Shown here: in pieces, positions 1 through 7,374 of the stretch
How the letters are laid out: the number at the start of each line of letters is the position of its first letter
How positions within the stretch are numbered: position 1 is the stretch's first letter
Source of the DNA: Acidobacteriota bacterium
Lineage (GTDB): Bacteria; Acidobacteriota; Terriglobia; Bryobacterales; Bryobacteraceae
Length of the DNA: 38,202 nucleotides
Assembly: GCA_016871015.1 (NCBI GenBank)
Contig: VFZX01000026.1
Location: forward strand, 1-38,202
Reading direction: 5' to 3'
Notes under the pieces: generated by a model
What the model was told of the DNA's origin: nothing
Databases searched by the model: none
The model's input: only the letters and a program-made list of their open reading frames with translations
Program-made: the position numbers and the translations under genes

Positions 1-552
1 ATTCGTTGCAGATACGCAGTGCCGAGGTTCATTCGCGTGGTGGCCCATTCCACCGGCATTGCCTGGCGCGTCCTCACCTCCAGCGCGTCGCGGTAGCAGG
101 CGATCGCCTCTTCCAGGTTCTCCGCCCGCTCCCCACGGATTCGTTGCAGATACGCAGTGCCGAGGTTCATCCGCGTGGTGGCCCATTGCACCGGCATTGC
201 CTGGCGCGTCCTCACCTCCAGCGCGTCGCGGTAGCAGGCGATCGCCTCTTCCAGGTTCTCCGCCCGCTCCCCACGGATTCGTTGCAGATACGCACTGCCG
301 AGGTTCATCCGCGTGGTGGCCCATTGCACCGGCATTGCCTGGCGCGTCCTCACCTCGAGCGCGTCGCGGTAGCAGGCGATCGCCTCTTCCAGGTTCTCCG
401 CCCGCTCCCCACGGATTCGATTCCGATACGCATTGCCAAGGTTCATCCGCGTGGTGGCCCATTCCACCGGCATTGCCTGGCGCGTGATTACCTCCAGCGC
501 GTCGCGGTAGCAGGCGATCGCCTTCTCCAGGTCCGAACTCATCAGCAGCGCA
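1..552. repeat. Four tandem 138-bp coding repeats (46-residue TPR-like units)
   Basis: Unit boundaries fall at 1, 139, 277 and 415, exactly 138 bp apart. The units at 1, 139 and 277 differ from each other at only a few bases, some of them synonymous (for example a G/C change in the Leu codon near 357). The unit at 415-552 is more diverged. The array lies in the reading frame of the minus-strand TPR protein and continues past the window edge. Near-identity at nucleotide level implies recent duplication or gene conversion. Confidence 0.95.
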
Positions 553-1196
553 TCCGCGGCCCTGACCAATAGCCGTGCGCGCACCAGTTCATGTCCGGGC
601 CGGCCCTCCAGCTCCTTCGCGTGGGACAACGCGTAATCCGGATCGAGAGTGGCTCCAGCCGCCATGTCGATCTCAGCGAGGTCCAGTATACCGAGCCCGA
701 CCGCTGGCTCCGGAGCAACCAGCTCCACCGGGATGACGGCGGTGGCGACGGACCACAGGTCCGGTGCCGTGTCACGAAAGAGAGGGGGAAGCCACGAGTT
801 CCCGGCGAGAATCACCGGACAGATAAATCGAGCCTGGATCTCGTTCCGGTGCTGATTGAGCCCAGCGAGTGCCGCCCTCCACGCCAGCCTCCACTCAGGC
901 TCCTTCTTGTTCAGATCGCCAACCGCGCCCGCGATCCAGACCGCCGAAGCGCTGGCTGGAACTTCCGCGCTTAGCACCGTCGTTGTGAGGTTTCTCAACT
1001 CCTCGGGGCTCCGGGGAGAAAGATCAACGACTGTCCCGTAGTGCGCCCTCAACGCCCCAAGAAGCGCCGTAGCGGCGGCCGGACCTTCCAGCGTCACTGG
1101 GATCAGAGAAAAGCTGGAGCTCAGATCGACGTGGGCGACGAGAGTGTCCCAGGACGGCCCAGCGCCGGGGCGCTCAATGCCGTCCATTCGGGACAT
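1..1196 (-). CDS. Partial TPR-repeat protein paired with a STAND-like ATPase (C-terminus beyond window)
   Basis: An open minus-strand frame runs from ATG at 1196 (alternative ATG at 1187) to the left edge without a stop, 398 codons visible. The first ~190 residues form a globular domain of a type seen in bacterial NTPase-associated TPR proteins: a motif resembling LNxxRxxI, then PVILAGNSWLPPL and APDLWSV. From about residue 208 come TPR-like units of 46 residues containing MNLGxAYLQRIRGERAENLE and EAIACYRDALEV. The first unit is diverged and the next three are almost identical. The start overlaps the end of the upstream ATPase gene by 23 bp, so the two are probably co-translated. Function is inferred: the repeats likely form a protein-binding superhelix and the ATPase is the likely partner. 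No catalytic effector domain is visible, but the C-terminus is missing. Confidence 0.8.
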   Translation of the reverse strand, partial: MSRMDGIERPGAGPSWDTLVAHVDLSSSFSLIPVTLEGPAAATALLGALRAHYGTVVDLSPRSPEELRNLTTTVLSAEVPASASAVWIAGAVGDLNKKEPEWRLAWRAALAGLNQHRNEIQARFICPVILAGNSWLPPLFRDTAPDLWSVATAVIPVELVAPEPAVGLGILDLAEIDMAAGATLDPDYALSHAKELEGRPGHELVRARLLVRAADALLMSSDLEKAIACYRDALEVITRQAMPVEWATTRMNLGNAYRNRIRGERAENLEEAIACYRDALEVRTRQAMPVQWATTRMNLGSAYLQRIRGERAENLEEAIACYRDALEVRTRQAMPVQWATTRMNLGTAYLQRIRGERAENLEEAIACYRDALEVRTRQAMPVEWATTRMNLGTAYLQR

Positions 1197-2514
1197 CGAT
1201 CGGCTTTGCCGCCATCTCGATCACGTCATCGCGGATCAGCGGGTGAACGTCGTACCATTCCTCGCCGTTCTTCAGGTAAAGAATCAAGTGGGTGTCGATC
1301 AGACGGGTCAAATGCGCGACATCTTCACTGCCGGTCGAAGGCAGGGCACAGCGCCGCGAATCGAAGACGTTCTTGAGCCAAATGGCGTCCTCATACGCGA
1401 TCGGGAGAAAAGAGTTACGAACCGCAATTAGCGCCGCGTCCACCACCCGGTCGGAAACTGGAAGTTCAGCGGCCGCGGCAGCCCGTGCAATGGTTTCCTG
1501 AAGCAATTTCAACAGGTCTTTGAAGTGTCCGCCGCAGGAATCGATGATTCGCATGGGCTGCGCGTCATTCGCCCAGAACCGGGCCATTCCATCAGGGCCG
1601 AATCGTTTCTGGACTACCTCGAGCAGACTCTGGCATCCATGTTCGAAGCGGGTTCGCTGAGGGTCGTTATTCCATTGCCGGACGTTGTGCAGGACATCCA
1701 CCGGCGTCCCAGCAAGGACGAACTTGAGCCACGGAGGAACTGTGTAGACCACATGGATGTACGGCAACTCCAGCCTCCGGATATGATTGGCGAACAACCG
1801 CTCGATGCTCTGGATGACCTCCTTCTCCCCACTGAGCGAACCGCGAATCTGCTCCAGTTGATCAAAGATGAAAACGACTTTGCCTTCCGGATGCCGTTTC
1901 CGGATCGCCTTCACACAGTCCTCCGCGAATTTCCGGACTTGATTTTCGAGTTCCTGCACGCGGGTGGCAAGAGCGTCTCGAACCCGCGTCCGGAACGAGT
2001 CGTTACCACGTAAGGAAACCTTGACGCTAAATCCGCCACCGCTTGCGCCGGTCTCAGGAATCTCAACTTTGGTCTCTCTCAAAAAGTGTTCAAACCGTGT
2101 CCAATAGCCCTCGTGCAACGGATCGCCGAATCCCCCGCGCTCCTCGATCGCATCGCCAAGCGCTCCGGCAATCGAAATCAATAGGTCCGTGATGTCCACG
2201 GGCTGGGCTGGATGGACATACTGTAGGGCGTCGGCGTATAGCACAAGGTGCCCGGCAGCTTCGAGCCGCTGCTTCAGGCGGAGCAGTTCGGTGGTTTTGC
2301 CGGATCCCCGGAAACCCGACAACAGGAACATTCCCTCGGTTTCCGCGAAGTCGATCTTGGCCTCCAACAGCTTCACCGGGTCTTCGACTCCAGGGCCCTC
2401 GTAGATCGGCTGGTAGAACTCGCTGCCTGGCTTGGTGGGATCGATCGGCTTGTTCGGATCGGTGTCGCGATAGAGCCGCCTCAAAAGATCCCGGTCTTGG
2501 GGCGAAAGCGCCAT
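1174..2514 (-). CDS. P-loop ATPase, STAND/AAA-like, with C-terminal winged-helix-like region
   Basis: 446 residues. Walker A is GFRGSGKTT (residues 67-75) and Walker B is KVVFIFDQLE (212-221, D218 and E221). Residues ~325-435 contain a helical region and a segment (DTHLILYLKNGEEWYDVHPL) resembling the winged-helix lid of STAND-type ATPases. There is no signal peptide, so it should be cytosolic. It precedes and overlaps the TPR gene, suggesting an ATP-dependent switch working with the TPR protein. It starts at ATG 2514, with TATACT ending 9 nt upstream, and is divergent from the CHAT gene with 52 bp between. It could alternatively be an ordinary AAA regulator. The P-loop assignment is firm; the conflict-system role is inference. 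Confidence 0.85.
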   Translation of the reverse strand: MALSPQDRDLLRRLYRDTDPNKPIDPTKPGSEFYQPIYEGPGVEDPVKLLEAKIDFAETEGMFLLSGFRGSGKTTELLRLKQRLEAAGHLVLYADALQYVHPAQPVDITDLLISIAGALGDAIEERGGFGDPLHEGYWTRFEHFLRETKVEIPETGASGGGFSVKVSLRGNDSFRTRVRDALATRVQELENQVRKFAEDCVKAIRKRHPEGKVVFIFDQLEQIRGSLSGEKEVIQSIERLFANHIRRLELPYIHVVYTVPPWLKFVLAGTPVDVLHNVRQWNNDPQRTRFEHGCQSLLEVVQKRFGPDGMARFWANDAQPMRIIDSCGGHFKDLLKLLQETIARAAAAAELPVSDRVVDAALIAVRNSFLPIAYEDAIWLKNVFDSRRCALPSTGSEDVAHLTRLIDTHLILYLKNGEEWYDVHPLIRDDVIEMAAKPIDVPNGRH

Positions 2515-2566: not shown

Positions 2567-4930
2567 ATGCGCCTTCCGGCCGGTCTGCTGCTCCTCACCC
2601 TGCTCGCCCAGGCCCAAACCGCCAACGAGCAGGCCATCGAGCTCGGCCGCCAGGGCTGGGCCGAGATGGACCAGAAGCACCGGCCCGCCTTCGAGCGCGC
2701 CCTGCAACTCTTTGAGTCCGCCCTTGCCCTGGCCCCCACCGATCCGGCAACCGAAGCCTACCTGCTGCACTCAGTCGCCGCCGCCAAAGCTACGCTCGGA
2801 GATCCGAAAGCGGCCATCCCTCTGCTCGAAAAAGCGCTCGCCATCCAGGAGGGGCTCCAGCAGGAGTCCTCGATCGCGAGCACGCTCGACCGCCTGGCTT
2901 CGAACACGCTCGCCATGGGCGACAGCGCCAAGGCCATCGCCCTCCATCAACGCGCACTCGCCATTCGCACCAGGCTCGGTGAACTTCGCGGACAAGCGCA
3001 GACCCTCACCAACCTCGGACTGGACTTCTTCTCCGCGGGCGAGCATCAAGCGGCGCTCGACCACTACGCGAGGGCGCTTCCCTTCTGGCGGCAGCTCGGC
3101 GACACGCAGGGCGAGGCAACCACGCTGCACAATATGGCCGAAGCGCACATCTATCTCGGAGACTGGTCCGCCGCGATCGCGTTTTGCAACCGCGCCCTGC
3201 CTCTGCACCGGTCGGTGAACGACTGGCCCGGGTACGTGCACACGCTCGTCCATCTGGGCGAGGCTAACAACGGACTCGGCGATGCGGTCCGCGCGCAACA
3301 ACACCAACAGCACGCCCTATCCGAGGCGCGGCAGCGCGGTCTCAAGTGGCACGAAGCCACCGCCATCATCGAACTCGCCGATTCGCGCGCCAGCGCAGGA
3401 CAACGGACCCAGGCACTGGCCGGATACCGCGAAGCGCTTGAGAAAGTCCAGCAGGCGGGCTGGCCGCAGCGCGAGGCCGCTCCGCGGCTGGGAATCGCCG
3501 ACACGGACCCGGAATCCGCATCCGCCGAGTATGCGAAGGCGCTGGAGCTGGCGCGCACTTACCGCAACGTGCCTGCGCAGATCCGGGCCCATGATGGACT
3601 CGCGCGTGTTGCGCTCCGGCGCGGCGCCATCGCGGAGGCCCGGACACATGCCGAGGCCGCCATCGCGGCCATTGAGGCGTCCCGTGCGCAAGTGCGGTCG
3701 CACCACCTGCGCGCCACGTTCCTCGCCACGCAACGCGGCGCCTACGAGCTGCTGCTCGAGATCCACCTCCGCGCCGGAAGGACCGCCGCGGCGCTCGACA
3801 CCAGCGAGCGTGCCCACGCCCGGGCACTGCTTGAGCTGATGGCGCAGACGCGAACCGCTGCTTCCGCCGCCGTCCCCGCGAAGGCAGCCGCGATTCAGGC
3901 GGCGCTCGATCCGGGCGAAGTGATGCTCCACTATTTCGCCGGATCGAAATCGCTGTTTCTCCTCGCCGTGGCGCGTGACCGCATCCAAGGCTTCGCGCTT
4001 GGTCCCGTGTCCGTGGTCAACAGCCGGATCCGCGGCATCCGCACGCTACTTTCCGCTCCAGGCCGGCGGCAGATGGCGGCGCTGGACGAGGGGGCGCGCC
4101 AGCTCTCCGGAATCTTGTTGCAACCCGCCGCGGACATCCTCAAAGGGAAGACAGCGGTGACGATCGTAGCCGACGGACCGCTGTACTACCTGCCGTTTCC
4201 GGTGCTTCCGTCGCCTGGATCCGCGGGCAAGCGAATGATCGAGGATTATCAAATCAGCTACGCGCCTTCAGGCAGCATCTGGTTGAACCGCGCGGCCGCG
4301 CAGGCGGCGGAATCCTGGATCGGGTTCAGCGAACCGGACCCGTTGCCCCCCCACCCACGCGCACTCGCCTGGCCCACGCTCGGGGGAGCAGCCGCCGAGG
4401 TGAGCCAGATCGCACGCCTTCTGCCCGCGTCCAATCCCGTGGCGCTCACCGGGAAGCAAGCGGCCGAACGGGAAGCCAAGTCCGCGCGCTTGTCAGGAGC
4501 GCGGTATCTGCACTTCGCCGTCCACGGATGGCTCGACGACCAACGTCCGGAAAACTCGGCGCTGGTGCTTGCCCCATCCCCTGGCGAGGACGGACTGCTG
4601 CGGGTGAGCGAGGTCAGCCAGCTCCGCTTGCGCGCGCGTCTTGCGATCCTTGCTGCCTGCGACACGGGACTCGGACCCACGCTCAGTGGCGAAGGCGTGC
4701 TGGGCCTGGCCCGCGCTTTTCTCCACGCAGGCGCGGAACGCGTGATGGTGTCGCTTTGGCCGGTCCACGATCAATCGACCCAGCGGCTCACGGCGGCGGT
4801 CTATGAAGGGATCGCGCGTGGCGATGCGCCCGGCCAGGCGCTCCGGTTGGCGCAGCTGCGGCTGCTTGCGGATCCTGCCACGCGGCACCCCTATCACTGG
4901 GCGCCATTCATCGTCATGGGCGCACGCTGA
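2567..4930 (+). CDS. Exported TPR-CHAT domain protein (caspase-like peptidase)
   Basis: 787 residues. The N-terminal MRLPAGLLLLTLLAQAQT looks like a cleavable signal peptide. Residues ~40-430 are TPR repeats (tetratricopeptide helices such as AKAIALHQRALAIRTRLGE). Residues ~450-787 are a CHAT domain, a caspase/separase-fold peptidase. The predicted catalytic dyad is present: His653 in LHFAVHGW and Cys698 in AILAACDTG. The start at 2567 follows ATGAGGTCAGG, with a weak ribosome site. Its 3' end overlaps the anti-sigma gene by 17 bp, tail to tail. CHAT proteins commonly act as proteases switched by partner binding through the TPRs; the substrate is unknown. Export would place it outside the cytosol, unlike CHAT proteins of intracellular defence systems. 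Confidence 0.92.
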   Translation: MRLPAGLLLLTLLAQAQTANEQAIELGRQGWAEMDQKHRPAFERALQLFESALALAPTDPATEAYLLHSVAAAKATLGDPKAAIPLLEKALAIQEGLQQESSIASTLDRLASNTLAMGDSAKAIALHQRALAIRTRLGELRGQAQTLTNLGLDFFSAGEHQAALDHYARALPFWRQLGDTQGEATTLHNMAEAHIYLGDWSAAIAFCNRALPLHRSVNDWPGYVHTLVHLGEANNGLGDAVRAQQHQQHALSEARQRGLKWHEATAIIELADSRASAGQRTQALAGYREALEKVQQAGWPQREAAPRLGIADTDPESASAEYAKALELARTYRNVPAQIRAHDGLARVALRRGAIAEARTHAEAAIAAIEASRAQVRSHHLRATFLATQRGAYELLLEIHLRAGRTAAALDTSERAHARALLELMAQTRTAASAAVPAKAAAIQAALDPGEVMLHYFAGSKSLFLLAVARDRIQGFALGPVSVVNSRIRGIRTLLSAPGRRQMAALDEGARQLSGILLQPAADILKGKTAVTIVADGPLYYLPFPVLPSPGSAGKRMIEDYQISYAPSGSIWLNRAAAQAAESWIGFSEPDPLPPHPRALAWPTLGGAAAEVSQIARLLPASNPVALTGKQAAEREAKSARLSGARYLHFAVHGWLDDQRPENSALVLAPSPGEDGLLRVSEVSQLRLRARLAILAACDTGLGPTLSGEGVLGLARAFLHAGAERVMVSLWPVHDQSTQRLTAAVYEGIARGDAPGQALRLAQLRLLADPATRHPYHWAPFIVMGAR

Positions 4931-5522
4931 GCTTGTAGACAGCCGCCGGATTTGTTCCCTGCCGGGCGTGGAACTGCAGCTCATACTCACCTGCCGCAAG
5001 TCCGGCGGGCAACAGTACGGTGAAGTCACCCTCCGCCTGCCGCACCGGATTCGCCTCCCGCCATAACACCCGCTCACCCGCCAGCAACTCCAGGCGGCCC
5101 GGCTCGAATCCTTCCACGGGGGGAGGCGTGAGCAGCAACAGCACTGGCTTCATTGCCGGCAACACGGTGACAGAACCGGGCGCGGAGCCTCGCTGGTTCC
5201 AGCCGGTGGGGATCAGGTCGGCGACACGCACGCTCGCGACCGCAGCCATGGGCGCCGCCACACTCGCTTCGCGCCACCAGCCGATTCCGAGTCCCACGGC
5301 GGCAAGCATCGCGGCGATCGCGAACCAGACCGGCACGGTTCGGGCGGGACGCTCGGCCGGTGCGGACGCCGCCACCGCCTCGCCCAGCCACTGGGTCTGC
5401 TCGAACTCCTTCCAACAGGCCGGGCAGGTTTCCAGGTGTGCGTTCAATTGCTCCCGCTCGGGCTCCGGCAGGGATCCATTCCAGAGCCAGGGCAGGCGTT
5501 CACGCGCCTCCTCGCAGGTCAT
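4914..5522 (-). CDS. Anti-sigma factor with zinc-finger (zf-HC2-like) domain and one TM segment
   Basis: 202 residues from ATG 5522, chosen because it overlaps the sigma-factor stop as ATGA; an upstream extension to 5582 would run into the sigma gene. The N-terminus has the zinc-binding anti-sigma pattern, Cys3 in MTCEEARERLPWL and HxxxCxxC in NAHLETCPACWKEFE. A hydrophobic segment (WFAIAAMLAAVGLGIGWW, about residues 65-82) should span the inner membrane, followed by a periplasmic beta-rich domain of ~110 residues. It would hold the ECF sigma factor inactive and sense an envelope signal. The 3' end overlaps the CHAT gene convergently. Confidence 0.88.
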   Translation of the reverse strand: MTCEEARERLPWLWNGSLPEPEREQLNAHLETCPACWKEFEQTQWLGEAVAASAPAERPARTVPVWFAIAAMLAAVGLGIGWWREASVAAPMAAVASVRVADLIPTGWNQRGSAPGSVTVLPAMKPVLLLLTPPPVEGFEPGRLELLAGERVLWREANPVRQAEGDFTVLLPAGLAAGEYELQFHARQGTNPAAVYKLSVRP

Positions 5523-6064
5523 TGTTGTTTCCTTTCCGGTTGCGCCATGCGGTCCCGCATCTCGATGGCGCGCTGGCGGCACCGGAGGGCGCGTACACGA
5601 AGCGCTCCTTCGCTGACGCCCATCTCAATGCTCAACGTCTGGTAGCTGTCTCCGGCGGCGACCCGGCGCCAAAGCTGGACACAGTCGGCCGGCATGTTCT
5701 CAATCACGGACCGGACCATCCGGCGTTTCTCGGCCTCGACCATCAGGTCCACTGGCGAACGGTCTGGCGTGCGCAGGGTTTCGGCAAGTGGAACTCCCGG
5801 ACGCCGCCGGTTCAGCAACTCGATGCAGCGGCGGATGGTGATGCGCCAAACGTAGGTCACCAAACCCGACTCGCCGCGGAACTTGTCCGCCCGCAGCAGC
5901 CGCGCGGTCTCCAATTGCGCTTCCTGGACGGCGTCTTCCCAATCCTCGCCCAGCCTGGAGCGGAAAGTGGCCGCCGCGCCCCGGATCCAGCGCGTGACGG
6001 CCTCGGCGGCGTCCGTTTCGCCGCCGAGATACCGCCGGATGAGTTGCCCGTCGGACTCTCGCAT
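5519..6064 (-). CDS. ECF-type RNA polymerase sigma factor
   Basis: 181 residues. Region 2 is present (DAVQEAQLETARLL ... FRGESGLVTYVWRITIRRCI, matching the DxxQE/YLxxIxRN pattern of ECF sigma-70 proteins). Region 4 follows (SYQTLSIEMGVSEGALRVRALRCRQ), a helix-turn-helix for -35 recognition. GGAGGG sits just upstream of ATG 6064. The stop codon overlaps the start of the anti-sigma gene (ATGA), the usual arrangement for translational coupling of a sigma/anti-sigma pair. Targets are unknown; the convergent CHAT protease is a candidate. Confidence 0.93.
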   Translation of the reverse strand: MRESDGQLIRRYLGGETDAAEAVTRWIRGAAATFRSRLGEDWEDAVQEAQLETARLLRADKFRGESGLVTYVWRITIRRCIELLNRRRPGVPLAETLRTPDRSPVDLMVEAEKRRMVRSVIENMPADCVQLWRRVAAGDSYQTLSIEMGVSEGALRVRALRCRQRAIEMRDRMAQPERKQQ

Positions 6065-6082: not shown

Positions 6083-6598
6083 CTACTCTACGCGACAGAT
6101 GCACCGGATTGTCTGAGTCTTCTTCGCCTGCGCGAAGTCTTTGCGCTCTTCTCCGTGCGGACCCTGCTTTGGCTTTGGTTTGGGTTCCACAGGCGGCTTC
6201 GGCCACCAAGGCGGCTTGGCCGGCGGTGAGGGTTTGGGCTTCGGCTCTTTCGTCTCGATGTACAACGAGCAGACCTGTTTGCGTCCGGCGCGGTCCGGAC
6301 ACGTGCCTCTGCACTCGCCTGAAACGATCCGGCACCGGTCCTGCTGCCAGTAGGACGCCGACAGAAGCTCTCCCGCCTCTCCCCCCTCCCGCAGCCGCAG
6401 GATGAGCGCTTCGATGTCCGGCCCGGTCTGGCGGAATACCATCGCCGTGTCCGCATCCTGCTCCACCCAGGCGATGTAGGGGGTGTTGGATGGGAGCCGC
6501 GCTCCCCTATGGTCGATGAGATTCGAATACGCGGGCCCGCAAACGGGCTCAGCCCAGGCACTGCCCGCGACTGTGACGAAAAGAAACAGGTTTCTCAT
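6083..6598 (-). CDS. Secreted Cys-containing protein with Pro/Lys-rich tail
   Basis: 171 residues, no recognised family. The signal peptide is MRNLFLFVTVAGSAWA. The mature part has seven cysteines (C20, C89, C96, C100, C110, C166, C168), suggesting disulfides or metal binding. Residues ~117-145 are a Pro/Lys-rich stretch with PKPKPSPP and KPPWWPKPPVEPKPKPK, resembling a cell-wall or periplasm-spanning linker. The start ATG 6598 overlaps the stop of the upstream gene (ATGA at 6595-6598), so the pair is translationally coupled. The sigma-factor gene follows 18 bp downstream. Confidence 0.82.
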   Translation of the reverse strand: MRNLFLFVTVAGSAWAEPVCGPAYSNLIDHRGARLPSNTPYIAWVEQDADTAMVFRQTGPDIEALILRLREGGEAGELLSASYWQQDRCRIVSGECRGTCPDRAGRKQVCSLYIETKEPKPKPSPPAKPPWWPKPPVEPKPKPKQGPHGEERKDFAQAKKTQTIRCICRVE

Positions 6599-7374
6599 TT
6601 CTGCCTGCCTCTCAACCCGCGCAGTCCTTCGAGCGGACTTGCGGTCTCTGTGTATCCGGCCGGAATCGACATTCCACCGAGCGGCGCGGTCCATACTTTG
6701 GTCGCCGTCACGTTGGCCGCGATTCCCGCCATGTCGGTCCGTGTTGCCATCGGAACCCCGTCCATCTTCTTGAACTGCTCGGCGAGCTGCCGCATTTGCG
6801 CGGCGTCTTCTGGCATCGCCGTGGCCATGGCGGAGAGTCCGCCGCCTGCGAAGAACTTGCCACCGAGCTTTTCGCGGTATTGCCGGATGAGTTCCCAGCC
6901 CGGAGCCTTCGTAATGCAACTGGTGGCTTTGATGCCGCCAATTGTAACGAGGAACTCCGAGCAGGTGTGCCCCGCGATGGACTCGGTCTTCCCGGTCTCG
7001 GTGATGCTCATCGTGCCAGCCATGCCAGGACGCTCGCCGGGCATCACCGGAGGTCCCGTCTTGGGCTTCTTCGATTGGGACCGCAACTGGTCGAGCGACA
7101 TGACCGAGTACGTTCTGTTTCCGTGATCGATGGTGGTGACAGTGGCTTTGGCGGCGTCGGTCCAGCGTTCCACCTGTCCGTCCTTGGTGTACATGAACGA
7201 GCCGTCGCAACTATGGGTCTGGCGCTTGGGGGCAAGCGATTTCGCCGCGCCCGGCATCTTCGCCATCATTCCACCGAACTTGCCGAGATCGGTCTTGGAT
7301 TCCTCTTCCCACCAGATGGCGCCAGGCAGTGTGTGTGCGATGGTCAACATCGCTACTGGTATGATCAACCGCAT
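6595..7374 (-). CDS. Secreted DUF4412-like protein
   Basis: 259 residues with a signal peptide (MRLIIPVAMLTIAHTLPGA). The sequence has features of DUF4412-type exported proteins: a methionine-rich N-terminal part, a segment on conversion to an assayable state (TYSVMSLDQL), and TESIAGHTCSEFLVTIGG. Function is unknown. AGGAGG is placed well (about 8 nt) before ATG 7374. It sits between the radical SAM gene (61 bp upstream) and the Cys-rich secreted protein (4-bp overlap). The family call is by pattern recognition and should be treated as moderate. Confidence 0.75.
   Translation of the reverse strand: MRLIIPVAMLTIAHTLPGAIWWEEESKTDLGKFGGMMAKMPGAAKSLAPKRQTHSCDGSFMYTKDGQVERWTDAAKATVTTIDHGNRTYSVMSLDQLRSQSKKPKTGPPVMPGERPGMAGTMSITETGKTESIAGHTCSEFLVTIGGIKATSCITKAPGWELIRQYREKLGGKFFAGGGLSAMATAMPEDAAQMRQLAEQFKKMDGVPMATRTDMAGIAANVTATKVWTAPLGGMSIPAGYTETASPLEGLRGLRGRQK

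What the first reader, a model, noticed from the sequence alone, without database searches (positions are those of the whole stretch)
2567..6064. Exported CHAT protease overlapping an ECF sigma/anti-sigma pair tail to tail
The CHAT protein has an intact His653/Cys698 dyad and a signal peptide. The anti-sigma factor has a single TM with a periplasmic domain and its gene overlaps the CHAT gene by 17 bp. A periplasmic caspase-like protease next to a membrane anti-sigma factor suggests regulated proteolysis controlling the sigma factor, or a product of its regulon. Convergent overlap also allows antisense interference.
Basis: partly seen in the sequence, partly recalled or inferred. Interest (0 to 1): 0.5.

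Follow-up and report, generated by a model that had tools for sequence, protein, structure and literature searches.

The report
Split caspase-like sigma-factor control module
Three neighbouring genes encode a gene switch (a sigma factor), the membrane protein that probably holds it off, and an exported caspase-like protease; the trio recurs in several bacterial phyla, sometimes with the protease fused to the membrane protein, so the protease very likely helps control the switch.

Summary
In detail: an exported TPR-CHAT protein (2567-4930 +) with His653/Cys698 converges on an ECF sigma/zf-HC2 anti-sigma operon, sharing 17 bp of 3' end. The link is not chance. In the family survey (41 genomes) 91 of 131 distinct CHAT places examined have an ECF gene within 6 kb. 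Of 22 relatives of this very sigma elsewhere in the phylum, 13 lie near a CHAT gene, 6 in the same tail-to-tail order. CHAT and sigma trees agree, even against swaps inside one genome. The dyad is intact in 91 of 91 linked CHATs.

Eleven related proteins carry zinc-type motifs, a hydrophobic segment and CHAT in one chain directly after an ECF gene. This resembles the solved anti-sigma DdvA: the window CHAT's best Foldseek hit is DdvA's outer part, and a profile of separate anti-sigmas best matches DdvA's N-terminus. I read the window as a split DdvS/DdvA-type module in which the periplasmic CHAT senses or cleaves the anti-sigma. Cleavage is inferred; no experiment was found. The overlap is ordinary (24% of convergent pairs in family regions); antisense control is unsupported. 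CHAT-ECF neighbourhoods and DdvA are known; the widespread split form is a new variant.

The parts
2567..4930 (+). exported TPR-CHAT (caspase-like) protein, 787 aa, dyad His653/Cys698
   Evidence: PF12770 7.4e-65; dyad positions; model pLDDT 87.6; best Foldseek match DdvA 8rw5, E 1.3e-17
4914..5522 (-). membrane anti-sigma factor, 202 aa: zf-HC2 + one TM + probable beta-sandwich periplasmic domain
   Evidence: zf-HC2 2.2e-9; TM; model; member of profile A7, whose top PDB match is DdvA
5519..6064 (-). ECF sigma factor, 181 aa, 4-bp ATGA overlap with anti-sigma
   Evidence: TIGR02937 4.8e-14; relatives beside CHAT at 13 of 22 places
4914..4930 (.). 17-bp tail-to-tail overlap of the CHAT and anti-sigma genes
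   Evidence: coordinates; overlaps this size are common in family regions

Best explanation
The three genes form one envelope-signalling module, a split version of the Myxococcus DdvS/DdvA system. The anti-sigma holds the ECF sigma at the inner membrane through its cytoplasmic zinc-finger domain. The separately exported TPR-CHAT protein sits in the periplasm, where its TPR superhelix senses a ligand or partner. When triggered, the CHAT cysteine protease acts on the periplasmic part of the anti-sigma, most likely as its first (site-1) cut; later steps by general proteases (a RIP-type cascade) would free the sigma. Shown here: the genes, domains, intact dyad, conserved linkage, tree agreement, fusions and resemblance to DdvA. 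Inferred: periplasmic location, physical contact, the cut, the signal, the regulon.
For: Linkage: 91 of 131 distinct CHAT places in the family survey have an ECF within 6 kb, domain to domain, and none has its nearest ECF at 6-8 kb (133 rows, two in L101 repeat L063). Of the 67 places with at least 6 kb held on both sides, 54 are linked. 90 of 94 scanned sigma segments match TIGR02937. This window's own sigma: of 22 non-own relatives (E <= 1e-14), 13 lie near a CHAT and 18 loci hold an anti-sigma similar to this one at E <= 0.01 (in L288 it is not next to the sigma). L172 (Thermoanaerobaculia) carries CHAT, sigma (41% identity) and anti-sigma in one direction. Tree agreement r 0.68; within-genome partner shuffles reach at most 0.32, 0 of 1000. 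Dyad intact in 91 of 91 linked CHATs. Fusions: 2 in the family survey and 9 more from a class search of 299 genomes, each with an ECF match just upstream. DdvA: top Foldseek match of the CHAT model and top PDB match of the separate anti-sigma profile. Eight neighbouring tree members look cytosolic, follow the sigma gene directly and have no separate anti-sigma.
Against: No experiment. No relative of this sigma at E <= 1e-15 was found in 100 other family genomes. In the 91-pair trees the window's CHAT and sigma have different nearest neighbours. 9 of 22 sigma relatives show no CHAT (L272 starts 132 bp before the sigma, L264 was seen with about 1.5 kb on each side only). The dyad is equally intact in unlinked CHATs (39 of 40, one gap), so it does not single out the linked ones. 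Pfam zf-HC2 reaches no fused protein over its cut-off: 2 of 11 (L241, L245) score weakly, 9 not at E <= 0.1; the motifs rest on the HxxxCxxC pattern and a profile match (hhalign 96%). At the domain alone DdvA (8rlz, 32.2 bits) barely exceeds 3hug (31.2 bits). By VIA Z-score several Csx29/Craspase and plain TPR chains rank above DdvA. The signal-peptide rule is positive in only 58 of 88 linked CHATs not cut at a contig edge. In Bacteroidota the anti-sigma is assigned by position and TM only; Pfam shows no anti-sigma domain in the five scanned. No clear shared promoter motif.
Confidence: 0.55

Rival explanations
1. The CHAT protein is a non-proteolytic periplasmic sensor or clamp: its TPR-CHAT body binds the anti-sigma and sets its state, and the cut is made by another protease. 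The CHAT fold serves as a ligand-binding or dimerisation unit.
For: In DdvA and the fusions CHAT is part of the anti-sigma chain, which suits a built-in sensor. The PDB title of 8rw5 calls DdvA dimeric.
Against: Both catalytic residues are kept in 91 of 91 linked CHATs, more than a binding role needs.
Confidence: 0.2
2. The CHAT protein is an effector made under this sigma (a regulon product), for example a stress or death protease in the envelope, and does not act on the anti-sigma.
For: ECF genes often sit beside their targets (general knowledge). The convergent order implies a promoter of its own for CHAT. In one of ten convergent loci (L114) the best shared bipartite upstream motif exceeded all 20 shuffles.
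Against: Fusions with the anti-sigma part and the DdvA match. In the other 9 of 10 convergent loci, window included, the shared motif did not exceed its shuffles (a weak test). A cytosolic-looking CHAT group lacks a separate anti-sigma.
Confidence: 0.15
3. The cut runs in the other direction or elsewhere: CHAT cleaves the sigma or an unknown third protein, and the anti-sigma senses CHAT or its products.
For: Extra proteins of unknown kind, 276-414 aa, are encoded between anti-sigma and CHAT in L014, L016, L095 and L114. In cytosolic-looking CHAT loci the sigma is the only evident partner.
Against: Does not explain the fusions as directly.
Confidence: 0.07
4. Chance neighbours: the CHAT gene and the sigma pair are unrelated in this locus.
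For: The own pair has no close twin in the sampled family; CHAT and sigma of the window have different nearest neighbours in the trees.
Against: 13 of 22 relatives of this sigma are near CHAT genes, 6 in the same orientation.
Confidence: 0.03

Closest known systems
Myxococcus xanthus DdvS/DdvA (ECF sigma and transmembrane anti-sigma; PDB 8rot, 8rw5, 8rlz)
   Same: ECF sigma with an anti-sigma; separate anti-sigmas as a profile closest to DdvA (residues 5-128); TPR-CHAT closest to DdvA's outer part by Foldseek. PMC4374960 (passages read): DdvS acts when DdvA is inactivated; signal unknown. That the PDB DdvA is the M. xanthus protein is my inference from the name.
   Different: In DdvA the parts are one 991-residue chain; here anti-sigma and CHAT are two proteins from convergent genes. 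The primary DdvS/DdvA paper (recalled) was not held.
Csx29-Csx30-CASP-sigma (type III-E CRISPR)
   Same: A TPR-CHAT protease cuts an inhibitor of an ECF-like sigma (PMC10028731, passages read).
   Different: RNA-guided, tied to Cas7-11. CRISPR genes in this window were not searched for systematically.
ECF54 group with CHAT, subtilase and carboxypeptidase neighbours
   Same: Conserved ECF-CHAT neighbourhood with proposed proteolytic control (PMC8999054, passage read).
   Different: ECF54 is described there as acting without an anti-sigma; one is present here. Group assignment was not tested.
CalpL-CalpT-CalpS
   Same: Protease cuts an anti-sigma bound to an ECF sigma (PMC11417357, passages read).
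   Different: Lon-type protease with a SAVED domain, cyclic oligoadenylate signal.
Prokaryotic metacaspase and EACC2-caspase neighbourhoods with sigma factors
   Same: Caspase-like genes beside sigma genes (PMC3501461; PMC8195603; passages read).
   Different: Metacaspase or EACC2-linked caspase domains, not TPR-CHAT with a zf-HC2 anti-sigma.

Membership tests
ECF sigma / class I membrane anti-sigma pair | ECF-type sigma with regions 2 and 4 | tested here: met
   TIGR02937 over cut-off, residues 24-165; Pfam region 2 alone is just below its cut-off and region 4 is not listed
ECF sigma / class I membrane anti-sigma pair | adjacent gene with zinc-finger anti-sigma domain and one TM | tested here: met
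   zf-HC2 2.2e-9 over cut-off; TM; three-helix N-terminus in model
ECF sigma / class I membrane anti-sigma pair | the anti-sigma inhibits the sigma | not testable with these tools
   needs an experiment
TPR-CHAT protease | CHAT domain with His-Cys dyad and TPR repeats | tested here: met
TPR-CHAT protease | proteolytic activity | not testable with these tools
   needs an experiment
DdvS/DdvA-type system | anti-sigma domain related to DdvA N-terminus | tested here: inconclusive
   profile A7 of 33 separate anti-sigmas including the window: DdvA is the top PDB match, 1.4e-8, but its domain alone nearly ties with 3hug; the window protein alone matches only RsiW, weakly
DdvS/DdvA-type system | outer part of TPR-CHAT architecture | tested here: met
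   Foldseek E 1.3e-17; VIA Z 25.5, 618 residues, rmsd 5.7
DdvS/DdvA-type system | anti-sigma, TM and TPR-CHAT in one polypeptide | tested here: not met
   two genes on opposite strands; a one-chain form exists in 11 related proteins
ECF54 | no anti-sigma in the neighbourhood | tested here: not met
   zf-HC2 anti-sigma adjacent; the definition is from PMC8999054
Csx29/Craspase | association with Cas7-11 and guide RNA | not tested
   no systematic CRISPR search was made; the NCBIfam Csx29 model scores 18.3 bits against a cut-off of 300

The most novel reading that the evidence does not exclude
Caspase-like CHAT proteases are a widespread, unrecognised class of site-1 protease or protease-sensor for membrane anti-sigma factors. 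They occur in exported, membrane-anchored, cytosolic and fused forms in Acidobacteriota, Bacteroidota and Calditrichota, with DdvA as the fused special case and CRISPR Craspase as a captured cytoplasmic relative.
Probability: 0.4. Interest if true: 0.75.

Novelty: new variant of a known kind. Interest (0 to 1): 0.55.

Why it matters
Membrane anti-sigmas are classically opened by proteases such as DegS (named in PMC10028731). A caspase-family protease in that role outside CRISPR would give many orphan TPR-CHAT genes a function, place bacterial caspase relatives in everyday envelope signalling rather than only in immunity or death, and suggest where Craspase's cut-the-sigma-inhibitor logic came from. 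The split form makes the question testable: CHAT can be removed or mutated without touching the anti-sigma, which a fused protein does not allow.

Tried and rejected
Chance adjacency: rejected.

Antisense control through the overlap: 66 of 275 convergent pairs in the family regions (24%) and 11 of 47 in the Bacteroidota loci overlap, five of those 11 being, by length, the CHAT/anti-sigma pairs. CHAT/anti-sigma immediate convergent neighbours overlap in 11 of 14 cases that I compared by stop positions (window 17, L146 4, L175 22, L180 4, L187 4, L191 77, L193 9, L206 12, L273 32, L281 44, L266 4; not L282, L290, L291). This is above background, but several are related by descent, so it is only suggestive.

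Shared ECF promoter upstream of CHAT and sigma in ten convergent loci: 9 of 10 did not exceed their 20 shuffles (window 10 of 11 letters, shuffle mean 9.3, maximum 11); L114 reached 11 against a shuffle maximum of 10. With ten loci tested I do not build on it.

The AAA ATPase 1174-2514 as part of the module: no relative in the survey loci. PADLOC: only a generic TPR model for the CHAT protein and nothing for the other four scanned. Fold search of the anti-sigma model: no match below E 0.016. Nearest sequence relative of the CHAT in the family (G049, L033): its 4.9-kb contig shows no ECF.

Survey limits: the 41 family genomes were drawn by the tool. Of the CHAT places listed I fetched the 120 best non-own ones; weaker ones were not fetched, except one that fell inside L118. 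L194 and L203 appear, from contig lengths and coordinates, to repeat places L061 and L052; L237 repeats a CHAT of L211. That the family is Bryobacteraceae is inferred: contig G033:C4 and the Bryobacteraceae MAG contig of L194 have the same length. L264 and L266 were examined only in the 3.5 kb that the search returned.

Mended on re-check: sigma relatives were first counted as 20 of 22; one search added the last two.
Full report
What is there. The window lies in an 8.66 Mb, 720-contig assembly. A TPR-CHAT gene with a signal-peptide-like start (2567-4930 +) meets, tail to tail, an operon of an ECF sigma (5519-6064 -) and a zf-HC2, single-TM anti-sigma (4914-5522 -). Domain calls. Dyad His653/Cys698. 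Overlap 17 bp. The sigma stop and anti-sigma start overlap as ATGA.

Own genome. Of 11 CHAT matches, 7 have an ECF match within 6 kb: C26, C226, C70, C125, C45, C216, C134. The C70 match is below the family cut-off. Three of the other four CHATs lie close to a contig end or on a very short contig (C195, C148, C583).

Family survey. All 41 genomes (at least 90% complete) carry CHAT. In 120 fetched regions plus the own-genome loci, 91 of 131 distinct CHAT places have an ECF within 6 kb, and none has its nearest ECF at 6-8 kb (133 rows include two repeats in L101). Where at least 6 kb is held on both sides, 54 of 67 are linked. Orders: 41 sigma then CHAT, 42 CHAT then sigma, 6 convergent, 2 divergent. 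The ECF model was built from seven own-genome sigmas; 90 of 94 sigma segments match TIGR02937 at E <= 1e-3. An HxxxCxxC anti-sigma candidate follows the sigma in 63 of 91.

Co-evolution. CHAT and ECF trees of the 91 pairs agree: r 0.68; full shuffles at most 0.14, swaps among pairs of one genome at most 0.32, 0 of 1000 each. Within the sigma-then-CHAT class, r 0.71 against a within-genome maximum of 0.50. In the CHAT-then-sigma class within-genome swaps reach the value in 18 of 1000, with only 4 genomes able to swap. The window pair itself is on long branches with different neighbours in the two trees.

This sigma. Relatives at E <= 1e-14 occur in 18 of 396 genomes of the phylum, the own one included. 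Of the 22 non-own places, 13 have a CHAT within 6 kb: 6 convergent (L273, L281, L282, L290, L291, L266), 4 CHAT then sigma, 2 sigma then CHAT, 1 divergent; 9 show none. 18 of 22 loci hold an anti-sigma similar to this one; L290 and L291 have a TM protein in its place that the search did not match. L172, a Thermoanaerobaculia MAG, has the same three genes in one direction: sigma 41% identical over 157 columns, CHAT 36% over 362 columns, and anti-sigma zinc finger 43% over 37.

Other phyla. Among 104 CHATs in 80 named loci (best 80 of 578 or more), ECF within 6 kb: Acidobacteriota 13 of 23, Bacteroidota with Balneola and Rhodothermota 17 of 28, Calditrichota 2 of 2, others 1 of 7, Cyanobacteriota 0 of 44. 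Bacteroidota loci repeat the convergent order with a TM protein as anti-sigma candidate. Pfam sees no anti-sigma domain in the five scanned, and TPR-like repeats in four of them. The CHAT proteins of L180, L188, L191 and L206 show a C-terminal hydrophobic segment.

Fusions. L110 and L130 encode, directly after an ECF gene, one chain with two HxxxCxxC motifs, a hydrophobic segment, TPR and CHAT (the segment is weaker in L110). A class search with L130 found matches in 9 of 299 genomes; all nine have one or two motifs, a TM segment, CHAT in one frame and an ECF match just upstream. TPR models exceed a Pfam cut-off in 7 of the 11 chains and are weaker in L241, L242, L244 and L247; zf-HC2 is weak in L241 and L245 and absent from the other 9 at E <= 0.1. 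The N-termini match the separate anti-sigmas (hhalign 96%, E 3.4e-9, 48 columns).

DdvA. The model of the window CHAT (pLDDT 87.6, pTM 0.85) has DdvA 8rw5 and 8rot as its two best Foldseek matches, then separase and Csx29. By VIA, DdvA aligns over 618 residues at rmsd 5.7 (Z 25.5), while the best Csx29/Craspase chains reach Z 30 at rmsd 11-14 and TPR-only proteins Z 30.8. Independently, the profile of 33 separate anti-sigmas has DdvA as its best PDB match (8rot 1.4e-8, 8rlz 8.5e-7), ahead of 3hug (1.8e-6; recalled as RskA), RsiW and ChrR. On the domain alone DdvA and 3hug nearly tie. The same DdvA chain also matches the CHAT profile at residues 834-976, with the His and Cys aligned. So the two window proteins correspond to the two halves of DdvA. 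The window anti-sigma alone matches only RsiW, weakly.

Mechanism. Shown: anatomy, linkage, tree agreement, fusions, intact dyad. Inferred: periplasmic CHAT acts on the anti-sigma, probably by a first cut, and frees the sigma. Eight CHATs that are adjacent in the leaf order of both trees (L054, L057, L070, L073, L079, L086, L100, L109) show no hydrophobic segment before CHAT at my threshold, start within 42 nt of the sigma stop and have no separate anti-sigma (L054 passes the short signal-peptide rule marginally). This is what one expects if CHAT works in the compartment of its target.

Literature. Seen: passages of PMC10028731, PMC8999054, PMC8103513, PMC7406223, PMC3174227, PMC8195603, PMC3501461, PMC11417357 and PMC4374960. 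Among the titles and abstract openings listed by ten searches of the open library I saw no paper on an exported TPR-CHAT protein paired with a separate zf-HC2 anti-sigma. Most subscription papers, and the primary DdvS/DdvA paper that I looked up, are not held, so this is no proof of absence.

Noticed in passing
window 3-1196 (-) and 1174-2514 (-): AAA-type ATPase followed by a TPR protein running off the contig; its repeats are up to 84% identical to those of the TPR-CHAT protein on C354 (L015). The TPR gene may be a second CHAT gene cut by the contig end.
   Followed up: partly
window 6083-6598 (-) and 6595-7374 (-): A small exported-looking, proline-rich protein ends 18 bp before the sigma start, and a second exported-looking protein lies upstream; both may share the sigma operon. 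Pfam finds no family for either.
   Followed up: partly
L084 and L158: Next to the fusions L110/L130 in both trees, but the zinc-motif part and the CHAT part are separate ORFs; real split or sequence error is unresolved.
   Followed up: no
L054, L057, L070, L073, L079, L086, L100, L109: CHAT proteins without evident membrane segment, starting within 42 nt of the sigma stop, no separate anti-sigma: CHAT itself may be the anti-sigma.
   Followed up: partly
L014, L016, L095, L114: An unassigned protein of 276-414 aa is encoded between anti-sigma and CHAT (Pfam over L014, L016 and L114: nothing over a cut-off).
   Followed up: no
26 cyanobacterial loci: None of 44 cyanobacterial CHATs lies within 6 kb of a detected ECF gene, in contrast to Acidobacteriota and Bacteroidota.
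   Followed up: no
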